Origin: an uncultured Mucispirillum sp. | GTDB lineage: Bacteria > Chrysiogenota > Deferribacteres > Deferribacterales > Mucispirillaceae | Direction of reading: 5' to 3' | DNA: 48,923 nt | Assembly: GCA_944324465.1 (NCBI GenBank) | Contig: CALUWI010000017.1 | Coordinates: forward strand, 1-48,923 | Shown here: piece by piece, positions 495-11,235 of the stretch | How positions within the stretch are numbered: position 1 is the first letter of the stretch | How the letters are laid out: each line of letters starts with the position of its first letter | The notes under the pieces: model-generated | What the model was told of the DNA's origin: nothing | Seen by the model: only the letters and a program-made list of their open reading frames with translations | Databases searched by the model: none | Made by a program: the position numbers and the translations under genes

Positions 495-1820
495 TTAATT
501 AGCCGCACTTGGTAAATTTTTTGCTGCTTTATTATAATTTGTTATAAGTGTTCTGCCTGCTTCTGTTTGAGATGTGCCATCAAAGAAAATATTTAATACA
601 TTTGTTGTAAAAGCTGCACTATCCTGATTAAATTCATCATAAGTATTTACACCATGATTTGTTAATTCTTTAATAATTACAGGCACTATTGTAGTATTTG
701 CATACATAGCATCACTCATAGGATTAAATGTAGTAAGTTTTGTGCCGCCTGCATTTACTAATGCTCTATAAAACTCTAATGCTCTGTTTTTTGATTTTTG
801 AGTTGCAGTATCTTTTACATAACCATCTAACCCTGCTAAAATCATAGCTGGAAATATCATTTCATCAGTTCCTGATGTTTGTAATGCTTCTTCATCCTGA
901 GTGCCAGTAGAAGTGCTTTCTGCATATCCATACTCTACAAATATATTAGATAAAGTCTGCATAAATGCCATCATTTCCTGCATAACTTGCATATTAGGAC
1001 CAGTAGGACCCATAATTTGCTGACCATTTGTTAAAATCAGCATAACAGAAAAATCTGGTGTTGCTATATTCCAATTATTAATATCCTTAATATATTCACC
1101 TCTATCATAAAATCCCTGTGCTAATGCATCTAAAAATGGCATATTATCAGGTAATACATATGGAGTTTTTATTCCTGAAATCCCACTTGATGAATTATTT
1201 AAATAATTTATAAAACTGCTGAATAAATAAACCATATTTGATGCGCCATTATTATCAAATGCACCAGAACTACTGATTTTTTCTTCTAATTTATCTGAAA
1301 TATATATAATTGGATTTGTATTATTTCTTACTCTTCTTAATGTATCAAGTAGCTCAGAGCCAGCAGTTCCATTCATAAATACACCCATTACTTTACCCAT
1401 AAATACACTTGCTTCAACATCTAATTCTGTATATGGAAGAATAGATGCAGTTGCATCGTTAGATGCTATTATTTTTGCCATAGCAGATGCAATTTCAGTA
1501 TTTGTTACTTCCCCAATACCAGCTACAGGAGGCATTTGCCCTCTTCCTACAATATTTTGAAATAATGATTTGATATTTGTTTCTGCATTTTGAGAATATT
1601 CACTAGAATATACTGGACTATCTTTAACATCACTTTCTTTAACATACTTTTTAAACTCATTTAAAAAAGCATTATCAACTTCATCATTAGTGTTAACAGT
1701 TGCTGACGGTGTTTGATTAGGGTCAAAACTGGTTTCTCCATTACTATTACCACTTTCTTCTGCACAGCCTGCAAGTGATAAAACAAAAATAGATAATAAA
1801 AGTAAAAATTTTTTCTTCAT
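495..1820 (-). CDS. Putative lipoprotein of unknown function, 441 aa
   Basis: The protein has a clear lipoprotein signal: MKKKF, a hydrophobic Leu-rich segment, and the lipobox LAGC with the lipidated Cys near residue 19. An acidic, Ser/Asn/Thr-rich linker follows, then about 380 residues of globular sequence with no motif I recognise. The start has a GGAGATG-type Shine-Dalgarno sequence before ATG at 1820. It follows tonB after a 64-base gap on the same strand, so it may be read from the heme operon as its last gene or have its own promoter in that AT-rich gap. A hairpin follows the stop codon. It may be an envelope partner of the upstream uptake system, but nothing in the sequence proves that. 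Confidence 0.75.
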   Translation of the reverse strand: MKKKFLLLLSIFVLSLAGCAEESGNSNGETSFDPNQTPSATVNTNDEVDNAFLNEFKKYVKESDVKDSPVYSSEYSQNAETNIKSLFQNIVGRGQMPPVAGIGEVTNTEIASAMAKIIASNDATASILPYTELDVEASVFMGKVMGVFMNGTAGSELLDTLRRVRNNTNPIIYISDKLEEKISSSGAFDNNGASNMVYLFSSFINYLNNSSSGISGIKTPYVLPDNMPFLDALAQGFYDRGEYIKDINNWNIATPDFSVMLILTNGQQIMGPTGPNMQVMQEMMAFMQTLSNIFVEYGYAESTSTGTQDEEALQTSGTDEMIFPAMILAGLDGYVKDTATQKSKNRALEFYRALVNAGGTKLTTFNPMSDAMYANTTIVPVIIKELTNHGVNTYDEFNQDSAAFTTNVLNIFFDGTSQTEAGRTLITNYNKAAKNLPSAAN

Positions 1821-3049: not shown

Positions 3050-3661
3050 CTACACCTGATTTTTGCTTTCCCTTTTACATATTTCTAAAACTCTATAACT
3101 GTGTTCAATAGCTTCTATATGAAATGCCCTGAATTTAAGCATTAAATAGTAATATAATACAAGCACTGGAATGGCAACTGTAAGCCCCATGATAGTAGTA
3201 AGCAGTGCTTCCCATATACCACCTGCCAAAGATGCAGAATCTGGGTTACCCTCAGATGCTATCACCTGAAATACTCCCACCATACCTAAAACTGTGCCTA
3301 AAAGACCTAATAATGGCGATATAACAGATATCAGCCTAAGCCATGTAAGTGATTTTGAAACATGTTCAAAATTTCTGTGAAAAAGGTATGCCACCTCACT
3401 TCTTATATCTTCAGAATGTTCTGCATGAATATTTATAATATCACTAATTATTGCTATTAACGGGTTTTTAGTTTCGCTGCAAACATCTGTAACTTCCTGT
3501 TTATTTTTAAATTCACAGCATAAAAATTTCTTTTTAAACTCTCTCCATACAATAGTTAAATATATAAAAGTTTTTAGTCCAATATATAAAGCTATTGCTG
3601 CACATATTATAAGTGCAACTCCAGCATTACCAATTTGATGATAAATTGATATAATATCCAT
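3050..3661 (-). CDS. exbB: ExbB/TolQ/MotA-family proton channel
   Basis: ExbB forms the pentameric inner-membrane scaffold of the TonB motor. The 203-residue protein has three predicted membrane segments (about 12-36, 110-132 and 150-173) and the MotA/TolQ/ExbB core: LRLISVISPLLGLLGTVLGM with the conserved Gly/Pro pattern, followed by GGIWEALLTTIMGLTVAIPV, which holds the conserved Thr residues facing the proton path. The start lies 2 bases after the stop of the HutX/flavodoxin fusion, showing co-transcription with the heme genes. A TolQ role is possible by family, but the ExbD and TonB neighbours favour ExbB. Confidence 0.92.
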   Translation of the reverse strand: MDIISIYHQIGNAGVALIICAAIALYIGLKTFIYLTIVWREFKKKFLCCEFKNKQEVTDVCSETKNPLIAIISDIINIHAEHSEDIRSEVAYLFHRNFEHVSKSLTWLRLISVISPLLGLLGTVLGMVGVFQVIASEGNPDSASLAGGIWEALLTTIMGLTVAIPVLVLYYYLMLKFRAFHIEAIEHSYRVLEICKRESKNQV

Positions 3662-3663
3662 AT

Positions 3664-4962
3664 TTATAAACCAAGCCTTTCTACAAAAGATTTAAACACT
3701 GATTTTACATTATCTAAGTCATTATTATCAGGGTGAGTCTGTGCTTCTAAAAGCCTTGCTTTTCTTTCCGGTGTTAAAGGGTGAGTTTCTCCCATAAACT
3801 TACCCATATAGTCCATTAATTTAGGGTCAATTTTTCCAAGACATAAGAAACTGCCAAGCACATTATTATTTTTTCCTGATAGTTTAAGCATATTTTCGCT
3901 GTCTCTTATGCAGCCTTTAGCATGTGGAGAATCAGGATAAGCACCAAGAGTGCCAAAAAGAGCCACATTCATATTTTTTAATGACCTTATTAATTTTTTA
4001 CTTTTTGCATCAGGCAGGCCTCTGTCTACCCAATAACCTACTGATATAAAATAATATTCATCTATATTTTCAGGTAAATTATCAATAGGGAATATATCAC
4101 AGTTTGGAATAACACTTTGCACTGCTTCTGCAACTTTTTTAGTATTTCCTGTTAAAGATGAGTAAATAACAAGGCTTTTTCTGCTGACTGGTTCATATGA
4201 ATATTCACCTTTCATCTTATAAAATGAAGTTTTTATATTTTCTATTATCTGCCTGTTTTCTCTGCCTGCATATACAGAAAAAATTAAACCACCAGTCTTA
4301 TCAAAAAATAAAACAGAAAGACTTTCAAGAGTCATAAAAGGCATTGTAGAAAAAACTATTGTATGAATATTATCTGCTTTAATATGGCCTTCAAAAGCAG
4401 AGCCACCACCCATAATATTATAAAAGCCATGACCAAAAACACCTTCTGCAATTTTTGTAGATATTTCAAAAGCAGAACCTTTGTATTGTATAATAACAGT
4501 AGCTTTTTCCCATGTGGCAAGCTCTTTCCATATTCTTTCAAAATTTTTACCGTCAGTAATAGTCCGCATATTTTCAGGCATTGCATAGCATACTTCTAAA
4601 TCTGATACACCATACATTTGTGCAAATGTAGAAATAGTAAAAGGCTTTTTTTCCTGCATAAGTAATGGTAAATCTTCTTTTAATTTAGTAAAGCCTAAAA
4701 CTTTTTCTTCAATAACTTCTTCTTCCTTATCATATTTAAAAGGCATACCTGCTATATCTGGCTTTTGCATATTATTATGCTTATTTTCCTCTTTACCATG
4801 ACAGTGTCCCTGTTGTTTACCTTCTTCATGGCTTTGGACCTGCTGGTGCTCATTGCTGTGAGAGCCGCACTCACATTTTTTACCTTCATGGTTATGGTTT
4901 TCATGTTTTCCATGGCAGTGGCCATGCTGATGTTTTTTAGAATTTTCTTCAAAATTATTCAT
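3664..4962 (-). CDS. His-rich / HutX-like heme carrier / flavodoxin fusion
   Basis: This 432-residue protein has three parts. Residues 1-70 are extremely His-, Glu- and Lys-rich, with HGHCHGKH and GHCHGKEENK motifs and Cys pairs, suggesting heme or metal binding. Residues about 90-255 resemble HutX/ChuX, a cytosolic heme carrier made with HutW in other bacteria: the FTISTFAQMYGVSDLEV start, GHGFYNIMGGG, GHIKADNIHTIVF and FSVYAGRENR segments fit. Residues about 262-432 are a flavodoxin-like domain with the FMN phosphate loop SSLTGNTKKVA and a C-terminal half like the flavodoxins found beside bilin- and heme-degrading enzymes. The inferred role is to hold incoming heme or its product and deliver electrons to HutW in one polypeptide. 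AAGGAG lies 6 bases before the ATG at 4962. It sits between the ECF transporter and exbB in the same operon. Confidence 0.82.
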   Translation of the reverse strand: MNNFEENSKKHQHGHCHGKHENHNHEGKKCECGSHSNEHQQVQSHEEGKQQGHCHGKEENKHNNMQKPDIAGMPFKYDKEEEVIEEKVLGFTKLKEDLPLLMQEKKPFTISTFAQMYGVSDLEVCYAMPENMRTITDGKNFERIWKELATWEKATVIIQYKGSAFEISTKIAEGVFGHGFYNIMGGGSAFEGHIKADNIHTIVFSTMPFMTLESLSVLFFDKTGGLIFSVYAGRENRQIIENIKTSFYKMKGEYSYEPVSRKSLVIYSSLTGNTKKVAEAVQSVIPNCDIFPIDNLPENIDEYYFISVGYWVDRGLPDAKSKKLIRSLKNMNVALFGTLGAYPDSPHAKGCIRDSENMLKLSGKNNNVLGSFLCLGKIDPKLMDYMGKFMGETHPLTPERKARLLEAQTHPDNNDLDNVKSVFKSFVERLGL

Positions 4963-6414: not shown

Positions 6415-7211
6415 CTGTGTAAGCTCCTAAGGGACTCTGGCACTTCAATATGTATCTGCACCATAAATGATGTAACAATAATACATATAAAACAGATTAC
6501 TAAAAACATATCGTAAGCTGTAAAATTAAGTGATTTATAAGGGCGGACTTTATCAGAAAGCCCAATACCTTTTAACTCTGCAGCAACACCAAGTTCTTCT
6601 GAAGCTCTTAATGACCTGAATAATAAAGGCATAAAAAGATAACGCCCCATAAGTAATGGACTTTTAAAAAATGAAATAAATGATACTTCAATTCCCCTTG
6701 TAGCAAGAGATTCTATTATCTGCTTTATATCACTTATAAATGCAGGAATAAACCTTATCATTACAGCAACAGGTATATATATAAAAAGTGGTAAATTAAA
6801 ACTTTTTAAAGCTGTTAATATGCTTTGTATATTTGTAGTAAAAGCAAGGGGAAGCAGAACATTTATCATAGTTACCATTCGCATAAATGGCACAGCTAAG
6901 GCAAAATATGACCTGCCTTCCATAAAATTCACAAACATATTAATAATAAACAAGCTGCCTGCAGCAACTGCCATAATAAAAACTACAAACAAATAAGTTA
7001 ATGCCATAACTTTTGGTTTTCGCATATAAAATGCATAAATTAGAGAAGCTGCAAGCAATACAATTTGAGCATAGATGCTGGATATTGCAATAGCTGCAAT
7101 AGAAGTTCCAAAAGTAATAATAAGTTTTGCTCTCACATCTATTCCGCTCATACCTTTTAACCTTTTATCATCATATATAGTATTATCATTAACTGCGAAC
7201 GATTCCTGCAT
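6411..7211 (-). CDS. ECF transporter membrane subunit EcfT
   Basis: EcfT couples ATP hydrolysis to the substrate-binding S component in the inner membrane. The 266-residue protein has the CbiQ/EcfT pattern: several N-terminal membrane helices (about 30-125), a cytoplasmic helical region, and conserved basic coupling motifs of the Ala-Arg-Gly type, here seen as LATRGIE (near 170) and in the LFRSLRASEELGVAAELKGIG segment (about 195-215). A C-terminal membrane helix follows. It overlaps the S component by 24 bases and the ATPase by 4 bases, so the three proteins are made as a unit. AGGGAG lies 7 bases before the chosen ATG. Confidence 0.88.
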   Translation of the reverse strand: MQESFAVNDNTIYDDKRLKGMSGIDVRAKLIITFGTSIAAIAISSIYAQIVLLAASLIYAFYMRKPKVMALTYLFVVFIMAVAAGSLFIINMFVNFMEGRSYFALAVPFMRMVTMINVLLPLAFTTNIQSILTALKSFNLPLFIYIPVAVMIRFIPAFISDIKQIIESLATRGIEVSFISFFKSPLLMGRYLFMPLLFRSLRASEELGVAAELKGIGLSDKVRPYKSLNFTAYDMFLVICFICIIVTSFMVQIHIEVPESLRSLHR

Positions 7212-7734
7212 ATCTTAACTCCCTCACTGCCTTTACACCTGCAAAAAGTCCAATCACTGCTCCAATATAGCCAAAAGCTATAATAGGGATTACCATATAA
7301 ACAATTTCCGGTGTTTCTCTCATTACTAAATAAGCAATAAATAATGAAAGCACTCTGTATGAAAAATCAAAAGCTGCAACACCAATAACTGCTGCATATT
7401 TTTTTGAAGCTCCACCTGAAATAAGAATAAAAAATTCGCCAATAAAAGATGCTAAAAACATACCTAATGCTGTAGATGCTTCTGCACCCATAAGTAATAA
7501 AGAGATAAGCATAGATACAAATGTAAAAAGTATCATAGTGCCTGATTTTTTTACTTTATAAAGCATAACTATAAAAAATGTAGTAAATATTAAATTTTTA
7601 ATAAGCAGAGTAACAGGGTTCATACCACCGCCAGCTAAAGCCACAACCATAGTTATTACTTTTGCAGCTGCAGCAAATACACCTATTGTTACAAGCTCTC
7701 CAATTGTCCAGTGATATTTTAGTTTTTTAAACAT
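7189..7734 (-). CDS. ECF transporter substrate-binding (S) component, MptD/Trep_Strep-like
   Basis: This small integral membrane protein (181 aa from the chosen start) has about five or six hydrophobic helices and the S-component opening WTIGELVTIGVFAAAAKVI. Its overall look, including GGGMNPVTLLIKNLIFT and the C-terminal GYIGAVIGLFAGVKAVRELRYAG, fits the MptD/Trep_Strep group of putative S components, whose substrates are not settled. An in-frame ATG at 7746 overlaps the stop codon of the receptor gene (TAATG), but GAGG sits 6 bases before the ATG at 7734, so I prefer the latter. The operon gives the best substrate clue: heme or a derivative. An ECF-like heme importer has been described in Lactobacillus sakei. 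Confidence 0.83.
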   Translation of the reverse strand: MFKKLKYHWTIGELVTIGVFAAAAKVITMVVALAGGGMNPVTLLIKNLIFTTFFIVMLYKVKKSGTMILFTFVSMLISLLLMGAEASTALGMFLASFIGEFFILISGGASKKYAAVIGVAAFDFSYRVLSLFIAYLVMRETPEIVYMVIPIIAFGYIGAVIGLFAGVKAVRELRYAGIVRS

Positions 7735-7745
7735 ATTTAGCCTCA

Positions 7746-9830
7746 TTAAAATTTAGCAGCAAATTTTACTGCCCCGTATATGCCTGGTTCATAAATATCA
7801 ACAGATGTTCTATAAAGCTCATTAAGAAGATTATATACTTCTGCTGATAAGCTGAACTGCCTTTCAGTGCCAAAATCTACACCAACAGCAAAATTTAATG
7901 TTCCCCATGGGTCATAATAAAGTCCATTTGCAAATTCCTTATGAACTGTATCTAAACTGTCCTTTACTTCGCTTGAAAATCTGCTGAATACATCTATTTT
8001 AAAATCTACAAAATCATTAAAAGTATGCTGATATATAACACCTGCTCTGCCTGAAACAAGTGGAACACCTGTATCCCATGTATTTATCTCGCCATCAGAG
8101 TATCTTCTTTGCATAATAGTTGTATTAATATAAGGCTTAATACCTATTGGTGATAAATATCCTATCTGTATTTCTGCACCATGGCTTAGTGCATTTGATA
8201 CATTTCTATATCTTGTAGCATTAACACCAGCACTTAAAGGCACCTGTGCAATATAATTATCTGCAATTGAAACAAAATATACAGTATCTATTGATACTCC
8301 ATAATCGCTGTATCTAATACCAAACTCTACATTATTGCTTGTTTCCGGCTTTAAATCTGGGTTTGGATAAATTGTGCCGCCACCCATGCTTGATAAAATA
8401 TATCTTTCCTGCAATGTAGGAGAACGAAAACCTTGTGAGTAATTTAGTCTAATACTTAAATTTTCTACCCCAGTCCATGTTATGCCTGCTGCAAATACTG
8501 GTGCATTAACTTGAGATGAGCCTGTTTCACCTAAATCAGCAGGAGTCAGTTGTTCTACTGTGCCATCATCATAAACTTGTGTTCCATCTGCAACCTGCAT
8601 ATTTGCATAGTTATATGTCCAGCGAACACCATAGTGAAGTGTAAAATCAAGTGGCAGATATGATTCCCCTTGTGCATATAATGCATGGGAATATTCATAT
8701 CCTTTATTTCTTGAATGTTTAAAATAACTCATAAGAGTCCATGACGGGTCATATGGGGTAGAATCTACATTTGTATCAGCTTCTAGTATATTATAATTAA
8801 ACTCATAACCTGCTATAATATATGTATGGTCTGAGACCTGCCAGTCAGTTTGCAGCTGCACTCCATATTGTGTATTATAATTATCTGCATAGTTATCAAT
8901 AATAGAAGGCATCCAAACAACATCTTGGTTAATATCTACATGATTTTGCATATCCTTATGGCTTTGCTGATAGAAAAAATCAATGCGTAATTTTGGCATA
9001 AAAGATGCGATATTTTTTGCTTCAAAAAAAAGAGCAGCTTTCTGTCTTGACCATTCAGGCATTTTTACAAAAAAGTTTTCATAGCCCGGAGACTGACTTC
9101 CTGAGGATATATCTGAATTAAAGTAATCATAACTTGCACCAACTTTATAATTCTGCATAAAATTATAAGCAAGATAAGCACTATAATTCTGCTGTTTAAA
9201 TGAAGAATATGGAACTAAGCCAATAGGTGTTCTAAGCTGTCCCTGTTCATTGTAAGATGCACTAATTCTGTAATCAAACCCTTTTACACTGCCATAAATT
9301 GAGCCAGATTCGCTGTGCCCTGCAGAAGCGCCGTTATATGCAAGACTTAATGAACCTTCTACTGGTTCTTTACCGCCTTTTTTTGTAATAATATTTATAA
9401 TACCACCAATTGCATTTGAACCATAAAGCACAGATGCTGGCCCCCTAATTACTTCTATTCGCTCTATTAAATTAGGGTCTATCATTAAAGCTGTTCCGTC
9501 CATTGATTTATTTTCCACAATCTGCTGGCCGTCTATTAATATTAATGTTCTATTAGCACCTTCGCCTCTTAATGATATTCGTTTAAGCCCCTGTCCACCG
9601 GAATTAATTACCTGAACACCGGGAATATCCTGCAAAAGTTCACCAACAGTTCTAGCAGATGACCGTTTTATATCATCTTCTGTAATAATAGAAACAGATG
9701 CAGGAACTTCTAAAAGCTCTTTTTCAATACGGGTGGCATTAACTTTTACAGCAGTAGTTTCTATATGCTCCTGTCCGTAGCTTATAGAGTAAAAAGTAAT
9801 AAATAGAAAAGTTAGTATAATCTTTTTCAT
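7746..9830 (-). CDS. TonB-dependent outer-membrane receptor, probably for heme
   Basis: The 694-residue protein starts with a Sec signal (MKKIILTFLFITFYSISYGQ), then a TonB-box-like stretch and a plug domain (about 30-150) with VPASVSIITEDDI, LLQDIPGV, LRGEGANRTLILIDG and IERIEVIRGPASVLYG. A 22-strand beta-barrel follows, ending in a C-terminal Phe. In the barrel, GFRSPTLQERY and NPDLKPETSNNVEFG match the FRAP and NPDL boxes that are typical of, but not exclusive to, heme/hemoglobin receptors. No His lies between these boxes, where heme receptors such as HemR carry a heme ligand; a Tyr is present instead. It starts 4 bases after hutW, which is the main reason for assigning heme. Confidence 0.86.
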   Translation of the reverse strand: MKKIILTFLFITFYSISYGQEHIETTAVKVNATRIEKELLEVPASVSIITEDDIKRSSARTVGELLQDIPGVQVINSGGQGLKRISLRGEGANRTLILIDGQQIVENKSMDGTALMIDPNLIERIEVIRGPASVLYGSNAIGGIINIITKKGGKEPVEGSLSLAYNGASAGHSESGSIYGSVKGFDYRISASYNEQGQLRTPIGLVPYSSFKQQNYSAYLAYNFMQNYKVGASYDYFNSDISSGSQSPGYENFFVKMPEWSRQKAALFFEAKNIASFMPKLRIDFFYQQSHKDMQNHVDINQDVVWMPSIIDNYADNYNTQYGVQLQTDWQVSDHTYIIAGYEFNYNILEADTNVDSTPYDPSWTLMSYFKHSRNKGYEYSHALYAQGESYLPLDFTLHYGVRWTYNYANMQVADGTQVYDDGTVEQLTPADLGETGSSQVNAPVFAAGITWTGVENLSIRLNYSQGFRSPTLQERYILSSMGGGTIYPNPDLKPETSNNVEFGIRYSDYGVSIDTVYFVSIADNYIAQVPLSAGVNATRYRNVSNALSHGAEIQIGYLSPIGIKPYINTTIMQRRYSDGEINTWDTGVPLVSGRAGVIYQHTFNDFVDFKIDVFSRFSSEVKDSLDTVHKEFANGLYYDPWGTLNFAVGVDFGTERQFSLSAEVYNLLNELYRTSVDIYEPGIYGAVKFAAKF

Positions 9831-9834
9831 ACTT

Positions 9835-11235
9835 TTATCCTGCTGTAACAGTCATACAAACATCTTTTTCATTAAACATCATAGTTAATTTTATAAATTC
9901 CTGTAAAAGCTGAGAAAGGTTTACAAACCAAAACTGACCTGCTTTTGTAAGTATAATTTTGCCAGACTGCTGCATAATTACACCTGCTTTTTCCCACTGG
10001 TCTAAAATATCTTTTGTCATAGATATAAGTGGATAATTATATTTATTTTCAAGTCTTTTTAAATCAAGCCAGCCGTTTTCAAAAGATTCTGCTATTTCTT
10101 TATATAAAGCATAATCTTTATCTGGAATACTTATACCCATAATAGGTTTTATGCCGTGATTTACTGCTTCTATATAGCCTTTATAGTCGCGAAGTATCAT
10201 ATAGCTGTAACCGTTAATATTGCCACCTGCTCCAGCTCCAAACGAAAGACAGCTGGCATATCCCCTTGCAAACTGATTATAAATATTTCTTTCTCTTGTA
10301 GTTCTCTGCCAGTGGTTAACACTTAATCTTCTGTATAATGCTTCTTCCATTAACTCTATACTTTTAAGGAAAAATTCTGTTTTAGTTTTAACATCTAATG
10401 CTGGGTTTATTGAGCCATCTGCTATACGCTTACCAAGTGGAGTATTAGGCAGTACATTAAGCTGATAACAGTCAAAGCCATCTAACTCTAAACTTTGCGC
10501 TGTCTTAATATCATCTACCCATATATCCATAGTCTGATTAGGAAAGCCGTATATTAAATCAAGCACTATTGCTGACTGGTTATAGCTTTTCATCATATTA
10601 ATTCTTTCTATAATAGTATCTCTATCGCTTCTTCTGCCCATAGAGCGTCTTAAATCTGTATTAAAACTCTGCACGCCAAGTGAAAACCTGTTTACACCAC
10701 CTTCTAAATATGCTTCTACTTTTTCTTTAGTCATATTAGATATTCTGCCTTCCATAGTTATTTCGCAGTCGTTTGCAAGAGGCAGAACTTCATGAACTGT
10801 TTTTAATATTCTTTTAATATCTTCTACTTCTAATGCAGTAGGAGTGCCGCCGCCAAAATAAAGAGCATTTACAGGCTTGCTGTTTAATGCTTTAGTATCT
10901 TTCCACAGCATAATTTCTTTAATTAAAGTATCAGTAAATATTCTGCTTTGCTCTTTTCTATATGGCTGGTTATAAAATCCACAATATAAACAGTGAGTTT
11001 CGCAGAAAGGCACATGAATATATGCTGCAGTTTTATTATTCCTTTCCTGCTTTAAAACTTCCTGAAGAATACTTTGAGTTTTTTCAGCAGGTGCAAATTT
11101 ATCCATAAGTCCTGCATGAACTGCTGTTTTTTTCTCAAACGCATTTACTATTACATTATCACTTTCATTAACAAAATATTTTGACATATTATCTTTTGGG
11201 TTAATAAGCTCCATACCCTTATGAAATGTTTCCAT
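9835..11235 (-). CDS. hutW: Anaerobilin synthase-type radical SAM methyltransferase HutW/ChuW
   Basis: Known members open the porphyrin ring of heme without oxygen by SAM-dependent radical methylation, releasing iron and a linear tetrapyrrole (anaerobilin). The 466-residue protein has the HemN-like core: C78, C82 and C85 in PFCETHCLYCGFYNQP bind the [4Fe-4S] cluster, YFGGGTPTAL is the SAM-binding strand, and RFSLGVQSFN and VLDLIYGFPNQT are further core motifs. HemN and HutW share these motifs; the ending LLQEFIKLTMMFNE and the operon with a HutX domain, a flavodoxin domain and a TonB receptor favour HutW. It is the first gene of the operon, preceded by AGGGG about 8 bases before ATG. Electrons would come from the flavodoxin domain encoded at 3664-4962. 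Confidence 0.88.
   Translation of the reverse strand: METFHKGMELINPKDNMSKYFVNESDNVIVNAFEKKTAVHAGLMDKFAPAEKTQSILQEVLKQERNNKTAAYIHVPFCETHCLYCGFYNQPYRKEQSRIFTDTLIKEIMLWKDTKALNSKPVNALYFGGGTPTALEVEDIKRILKTVHEVLPLANDCEITMEGRISNMTKEKVEAYLEGGVNRFSLGVQSFNTDLRRSMGRRSDRDTIIERINMMKSYNQSAIVLDLIYGFPNQTMDIWVDDIKTAQSLELDGFDCYQLNVLPNTPLGKRIADGSINPALDVKTKTEFFLKSIELMEEALYRRLSVNHWQRTTRERNIYNQFARGYASCLSFGAGAGGNINGYSYMILRDYKGYIEAVNHGIKPIMGISIPDKDYALYKEIAESFENGWLDLKRLENKYNYPLISMTKDILDQWEKAGVIMQQSGKIILTKAGQFWFVNLSQLLQEFIKLTMMFNEKDVCMTVTAG

What the first reader, a model, noticed from the sequence alone, without database searches (positions are those of the whole stretch)
3664..4962. Three-part fusion: His-rich tail, HutX heme carrier and flavodoxin
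HutX-like carriers and flavodoxin-like reductases are normally separate proteins beside HutW. Here they are one chain, with an extra N-terminal stretch very rich in His (HGHCHGKH-type repeats). A single protein could bind heme, feed it to HutW and supply the electron, or hold released iron on its His-rich tail.
Basis: partly seen in the sequence, partly recalled or inferred. Interest (0 to 1): 0.72.

Follow-up and report, generated by a model that had tools for sequence, protein, structure and literature searches.

The report
Fused heme carrier and bilin reductase
A gut bacterium (Mucispirillum) has joined two normally separate heme-handling proteins, a heme carrier (HutX) and a flavin enzyme that carries heme and cleans up its breakdown product (HmuF), into one chain with a histidine-rich tail, inside one operon that imports heme and breaks it down without oxygen.

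Summary
Window 4962..3664 (minus strand) is one intact 432-aa frame. Residues 1-72 hold 13 His and 4 Cys and are predicted disordered. Residues 91-254 are a true HutX domain (TIGR04108 129.7 bits, cut-off 110). Residues 262-429 are a flavodoxin-like domain. A 30-sequence AlphaFold model superposes on ChuX/HutX (TM 0.91) and on the heme-bound flavodoxin FldH of Fusobacterium nucleatum (TM 0.82). The FldH heme ligand His134 is present (H394).

The domain is of the HmuF/FldH kind, which binds FMN and heme, hands heme to HutW/HmuW and reduces anaerobilin by hydride transfer.

The gene is sixth of nine tightly packed, co-directional genes: HutW, TonB receptor, ECF transporter, fusion, ExbB, ExbD, TonB. 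In two distant relatives with the same gene order, hutX and hmuF are separate but overlap by 4 bp. The fusion arose once, in Mucispirillaceae. I found no other HutX-HmuF fusion in about 1,180 genomes.

The His tail is younger: it is missing from two fusion carriers. A comparable His-rich tail sits on HutW in an unrelated genome with a similar operon. Its role (holding iron, heme or another metal) is unproven.

The parts
3664..4962 (-). 432-aa fusion protein: His-rich tail, HutX domain, HmuF-type flavodoxin domain
   Evidence: ORF; Pfam/NCBIfam; AlphaFold pLDDT 80.6
4747..4962 (-). His-rich N-terminal tail, residues 1-72 (13 His, 4 Cys), predicted disordered
   Evidence: pLDDT <50 over residues 1-74
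4201..4692 (-). HutX/ChuX heme-carrier domain, residues 91-254; H193 aligns with the His at chain position 98 of ChuX 2ovi
   Evidence: TIGR04108 129.7 bits; alignment; TM 0.91 to 5exv/6u9j/2ph0; H193 in 34/34 HutX domains
4180..4200 (-). short inter-domain linker, residues 255-261, at the place where G002/G003 have an ATGA stop/start overlap
3676..4179 (-). HmuF/FldH-type flavodoxin domain, residues 262-429; phosphate loop SSLTGNT, heme ligand H394 (FldH His134)
   Evidence: PF12641 158.9 bits; 8g64 alignment; TM 0.82 to 8g64
9835..11235 (-). HutW/ChuW radical-SAM anaerobilin synthase, first gene of the operon
   Evidence: TIGR04107 493 bits, cut-off 400
7746..9830 (-). TonB-dependent outer-membrane receptor, best match heme/hemoglobin receptor models
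   Evidence: TIGR01785 209.9 bits, below its cut-off of 316.85
7189..7746 (-). ECF transporter S component (Trep_Strep/MptD-like), substrate inferred as heme
   Evidence: PF09605 34.4 bits
6411..7211 (-). ECF transporter T component (CbiQ-like)
   Evidence: PF02361 56.7 bits
4978..6414 (-). ECF transporter ATPase with two ATPase domains in one chain
   Evidence: PF00005, two stretches
3050..3661 (-). ExbB
   Evidence: PF01618 91 bits
2656..3048 (-). ExbD
   Evidence: PF02472 81.6 bits
1885..2640 (-). TonB
   Evidence: PF03544 53.8 bits
11318..11332 (-). Fur-box-like palindrome about 83-97 nt upstream of hutW (12/14 to the 7-1-7 consensus), kept in position in the related loci; putative
   Evidence: not significant on its own in the window

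Best explanation
This is a two-domain heme-handling protein of the anaerobic heme-degradation pathway. The HutX domain takes up heme that enters through the TonB receptor and ECF transporter. Heme passes, directly or by way of the HmuF domain, to HutW, which opens the ring and frees Fe2+. The HmuF domain, with FMN and H394, then takes the toxic linear product anaerobilin and reduces it by hydride transfer. Fusing the carrier to the carrier/reductase keeps heme and anaerobilin bound and couples two adjacent genes at 1:1. The His-rich tail present in most Mucispirillum carriers most likely holds a transition metal, with released Fe2+ the favoured candidate (about 0.4). Shown: domains, folds, ligand residues, operon, single origin. 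Inferred: heme relay, anaerobilin reduction, substrate of the ECF transporter, role of the tail.
For: HutX equivalog cut-off met. The best solved relative of the C-terminal domain is FldH, 8g64, by sequence (E 5.6e-24) and by fold (TMt 0.82 against 0.72 at most for other flavodoxins listed). The FldH residues reported as conserved or cofactor-binding are present: phosphate loop, H89=H347, A147=A407, H150=H410, P151=P411, D155=D415 and heme ligand His134=H394 (PMC10404700). Operon with HutW first, with gaps of -23 to +15 bp, conserved in L003-L006 and G039. In G002/G003 the same gene order carries hutX and hmuF as separate genes overlapping by ATGA, and these are the sister group in the tree (100/90). 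A separate HutW-HmuF fusion in G556 and frequent hutW-hmuF neighbours also tie HmuF to HutW. A recent review states that HutX delivers heme to HutW anaerobically (PMC12670364).
Against: No biochemistry on this protein. H394 is kept in only 73 of 111 HmuF domains, so it is not absolutely required. HmuF is said to replace ChuX/ChuS and ChuY in Fusobacterium (PMC10404700), so having both domains could be partly redundant. The NCBIfam BilS cut-off is not met (93.6 of 155), so the exact reductase substrate is not fixed by a curated model. The tail's ligand is unknown.
Confidence: 0.72

Rival explanations
1. One reading: the flavodoxin domain is a one-electron donor that reduces HutW's iron-sulfur cluster, so carrier and electron supplier are in one chain.
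For: Radical-SAM enzymes such as ChuW use flavodoxin (PMC10035031); the phosphate-binding loop is intact.
Against: Closest relative is FldH/HmuF, not electron-transfer flavodoxins; HmuF/FldH do not stabilise the semiquinone and were assayed with a separate flavodoxin (PMC10404700); the heme ligand and conserved cap-linker residues are present.
Confidence: 0.12
2. The His-rich tail binds heme itself (as a low-affinity heme collector), not free metal.
For: It sits on a heme carrier; HG/GH and CH motifs could ligate heme; the tail varies in sequence but keeps His.
Confidence: 0.2
3. The tail is a general Zn/Ni/Cu/Fe buffer, or has no specific role; only the two folded domains matter.
For: Length differs between species (0, about 40 or about 70 residues); higher dN than the domains, 0.18 versus 0.08-0.09; two carriers lack it.
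Against: dN/dS about 0.26 shows constraint; an unrelated genome, G272, carries a His-rich tail on HutW within a similar operon.
Confidence: 0.35
4. Assembly or frame artefact joining two neighbouring genes.
For: In G002/G003 the two genes overlap by 4 bp, so a single frameshift could fuse them.
Against: The same fusion is read in seven genomes of two genera from independent assemblies, with no stops inside and one monophyletic origin.
Confidence: 0.01

Closest known systems
HutX/ChuX cytosolic heme carriers (V. cholerae HutX 5exv, E. coli ChuX 2ovi/6u9j; TIGR04108)
   Same: Sequence above the curated cut-off, same fold (TM 0.91), invariant GH(I/L) His.
   Different: Known members are stand-alone proteins of about 160-190 aa; here the domain has a His-rich N-tail and a C-terminal flavodoxin domain. 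The His at ChuX 65 is not kept (Q in this protein).
HmuF/FldH heme-binding flavodoxin-like anaerobilin reductases of Fusobacterium nucleatum (8g64; PMC10404700)
   Same: Closest solved relative; FMN loop, heme-ligand His, cap-linker A/H/P/D residues; in an operon with HutW/HmuW.
   Different: HmuF and FldH are monomeric 19-20 kDa proteins; here the domain is fused behind HutX.
BilS, flavodoxin partner of the bilirubin reductase BilR (NF045594)
   Same: Best-scoring NCBIfam model for the domain; a bilin-reducing context.
   Different: Score 93.6 is well below the cut-off of 155; no BilR in the operon.
V. cholerae hutWXZ and F. nucleatum hmuTRUVWF heme operons
   Same: HutW with its carrier and accessory genes in one unit.
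   Different: Inner-membrane import is by an ECF-type transporter, as in S. lugdunensis LhaSTA (PMC7299338), not a binding-protein ABC importer; no HutZ; ExbB/ExbD/TonB included; carrier and reductase fused.

Membership tests
HutX (TIGR04108 / PF06228) | Score above curated cut-off | tested here: met
   129.7 of 110 bits; 83 of 25 bits
HutX (TIGR04108 / PF06228) | ChuX/HutX fold | tested here: met
   TMt 0.91-0.92, rmsd 1.4-1.8 to 5exv, 6u9j, 2ph0
HutX (TIGR04108 / PF06228) | Conserved heme-site His (ChuX His98 position) | tested here: met
   H193, kept in 34 of 34 HutX domains; that His98 is a ligand is recalled, not tested
HutX (TIGR04108 / PF06228) | Binds heme 1:1 and transfers it | not testable with these tools
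   needs spectroscopy
HmuF/FldH | Closest to FldH/HmuF among flavodoxin-fold proteins | tested here: met
   8g64 is best by sequence and by fold
HmuF/FldH | Heme ligand His134 in the helical cap | tested here: met
   H394; 73 of 111 homologues
HmuF/FldH | FMN phosphate loop and conserved A147/H150/P151/D155 | tested here: met
   S269-T274, A407, H410, P411, D415
HmuF/FldH | Gene cluster with HutW/HmuW | tested here: met
   same operon
HmuF/FldH | Lys92-propionate ion pair (not defining: the position varies across the family) | tested here: inconclusive
   aligned residue is G350 with K349 beside it; the position is variable among homologues
HmuF/FldH | No stable semiquinone; hydride transfer to anaerobilin | not testable with these tools
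   needs redox titration and assay
BilS (NF045594) | Score above curated cut-off | tested here: not met
   93.6 of 155 bits
One-electron flavodoxin (electron donor) | Best relatives are electron-transfer flavodoxins | tested here: not met
   PF00258 18.1 of 25 bits; FldH preferred by fold

The most novel reading that the evidence does not exclude
The fusion is an intramolecular heme relay: heme moves from the HutX site (H193) to the HmuF site (H394), is presented to HutW, and anaerobilin returns to the same chain for reduction, while the His-rich tail catches the Fe2+ set free. The pathway would then be a channelled assembly in which lineages attach the same modules to different partners: HutX-HmuF here, HutW-HmuF in G556, HugZ-HutW in G818, a His tail on HutX-HmuF here and on HutW in G272.
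Probability: 0.25. Interest if true: 0.68.

Novelty: new variant of a known kind. Interest (0 to 1): 0.5.

Why it matters
HmuF was proposed to replace the ChuX-type carrier in anaerobic heme breakdown; this fusion, and the genomes that carry both, suggest that carrier and carrier/reductase can also work in series. Gene fusions are good evidence that the parts work together, so this protein gives a single-construct way to test how heme, Fe2+ and the toxic product anaerobilin are passed on. Anaerobic heme use in gut and oral bacteria is a current topic, and where Fe2+ goes after ring opening is not settled in the papers read here.

Tried and rejected
BilS membership: rejected, score below cut-off. 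Whole-protein precedent in the PDB: none; no entry covers both domains (TMq at most 0.37 among the listed matches). HutX-HmuF fusion outside Mucispirillaceae: none elsewhere in the phylum (51 genomes), in 334 other relatives, or in four further groups of 347, 13, 98 and 348 genomes; none on plasmids. A 19-bp Fur consensus gave no hit; the 7-1-7 form gives 12-13 of 14 matches upstream of hutW in all six loci, but 2-mismatch matches are expected by chance in this AT-rich window, so this is only suggestive. An apparent 680-aa HutX frame in G025 proved to be an ordinary 162-aa HutX gene. The statistics for His tails recurring in this pathway are weak: two independent gains among about 240 proteins, against 2 (apparently spurious antisense) in 641 background ORFs.

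Full report
What is there. The window is one whole contig (G000:C17) of a 2.4-Mb genome; the nearest named relatives are Mucispirillum (Deferribacterota). The finding is one intact frame of 432 codons on the minus strand, 4962..3664. Profile searches give HutX (TIGR04108, 129.7 bits, cut-off 110; PF06228, 83 bits) at residues 102-248 and a flavodoxin domain (PF12641, 158.9 bits) at 264-423. Residues 1-72 hold 13 His and 4 Cys, far above chance, with the motif GHCHGK twice.

Fold. A first AlphaFold model from 7 sequences was modest (pLDDT 68.7). A 30-sequence alignment with separate HutX and HmuF homologues gave pLDDT 80.6, with only residues 1-74 and 78-85 below 50. Against the PDB the HutX part matches 5exv, 6u9j, 2ph0 and 2ovi (TM by target length 0.91) and the flavodoxin part matches 8g64 best (0.82, against 0.72 or less for the other flavodoxins listed). 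No entry covers both domains.

What kind of flavodoxin. 8g64 is FldH, paralogue of HmuF from Fusobacterium nucleatum. McGregor et al. 2023 (PMC10404700) showed that HmuF/FldH bind FMN and heme (His134 ligand), do not stabilise the semiquinone, carry heme to the radical-SAM enzyme HmuW and reduce anaerobilin by hydride transfer. From the alignment, His134 corresponds to H394, and the residues they list as conserved (A147, H150, P151, D155) correspond to A407, H410, P411 and D415; H89 is H347. Over 111 HmuF domains H394 is His in 73, and H410, P411 and D415 in 107-108.

Surroundings. Nine genes run in one direction with gaps of -23 to +15 bp: HutW (TIGR04107, 493 bits), a TonB-dependent receptor of the heme/hemoglobin type, ECF S, ECF T, a double ECF ATPase, the fusion, ExbB, ExbD, TonB. 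The order is the same, as far as the contigs reach, in L002-L006 and G039. ECF-type heme import has a precedent in S. lugdunensis LhaSTA (PMC7299338). A Fur-box-like palindrome lies 83-98 nt before hutW in all six loci examined, but is weak evidence by itself.

Relatives and origin. In the phylum, 18 of 51 genomes have HutX or the fusion, and 17 have HutW above cut-off; the sets agree except for one genome whose contig ends before hutW. The fusion is in 6 of 10 held Mucispirillum genomes and in one genome of another genus of the family. A single-contig Mucispirillum genome, G041, has neither fusion nor true HutW. In two genomes of another class (G002, G003) the order ECF ATPase, hutX, hmuF, exbB, exbD is the same, but hutX and hmuF are separate genes whose stop and start overlap (TCATGA). 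A tree of 111 HmuF domains puts all fusions in one clade (99/87), sister to those two (100/90). The fusion is thus best read as a single event at an overlapping gene junction.

How rare. In the loci examined hutW and hmuF are often neighbours. G556 has a separate HutW-HmuF fusion of 640 aa with a Met/His-rich linker; in the tree it lies inside the G236 group.

The tail. It is about 70 residues in the window and L002, about 40 in L004-L006, and absent in L003 and L014. It is under constraint but looser than the domains (dN 0.18 versus 0.08-0.09; dN/dS about 0.26). Among 112 HmuF, 34 HutX and 97 HutW proteins only one other has 8 or more His in 30 residues: HutW of G272, with a C-terminal tail of HPHAKMGGHPHGEK-type repeats, in an operon TonB receptor, HutW, ECF S, T, ATPase, HmuF. 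Two independent gains on different partners of the same pathway favour a metal- or heme-holding role, but the count is too small for proof.

Mechanism. Shown: the domains, folds, ligand residues, operon, and single origin. Inferred: heme enters through the receptor and ECF transporter, is taken by the HutX domain, reaches HutW directly or through the HmuF domain, and anaerobilin is reduced on the HmuF domain. That HutX gives heme to HutW anaerobically is stated in a 2025 review (PMC12670364). The tail as holder of released Fe2+ is a reasonable guess at about 0.4.

Verdict. A real, conserved and apparently undescribed domain fusion (literature: only one paper on HmuF turned up, without fusions), best called a new variant of a known kind.

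Noticed in passing
L159:5451-7373 (-), genome G556: 640-aa HutW-HmuF fusion with a Met/His-rich linker: a second, independent fusion of the HmuF module.
   Followed up: yes
L137:3697-5904 (+), genome G818: 735-aa fusion of a HugZ-type heme oxygenase (TIGR04109, 227 bits, just below its cut-off of 240) with a HutW-like radical-SAM protein: aerobic and anaerobic heme degraders in one chain. L209:2787-4436 has a DUF2470-like stretch before HutW.
   Followed up: partly
L158:1416-2945 (+), genome G272: HutW with a C-terminal His-rich repeat tail (HPHAKMGGHPHGEK), in an operon with the same type of ECF transporter and a separate hmuF.
   Followed up: partly
window 495-1820 (-): Lipoprotein of 441 aa with no Pfam family, directly downstream of tonB and kept there in L004-L006; possible extra part of the heme system.
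   Followed up: no
window 7189-7746 (-): Trep_Strep/MptD-like ECF S component inside a heme operon, also in G272: suggests heme as the substrate of this S family.
   Followed up: partly
G041, G045: Some near-complete Mucispirillum genomes (one of them a single contig) lack HutW above cut-off and the fusion, so the heme operon is patchy within the genus.
   Followed up: partly
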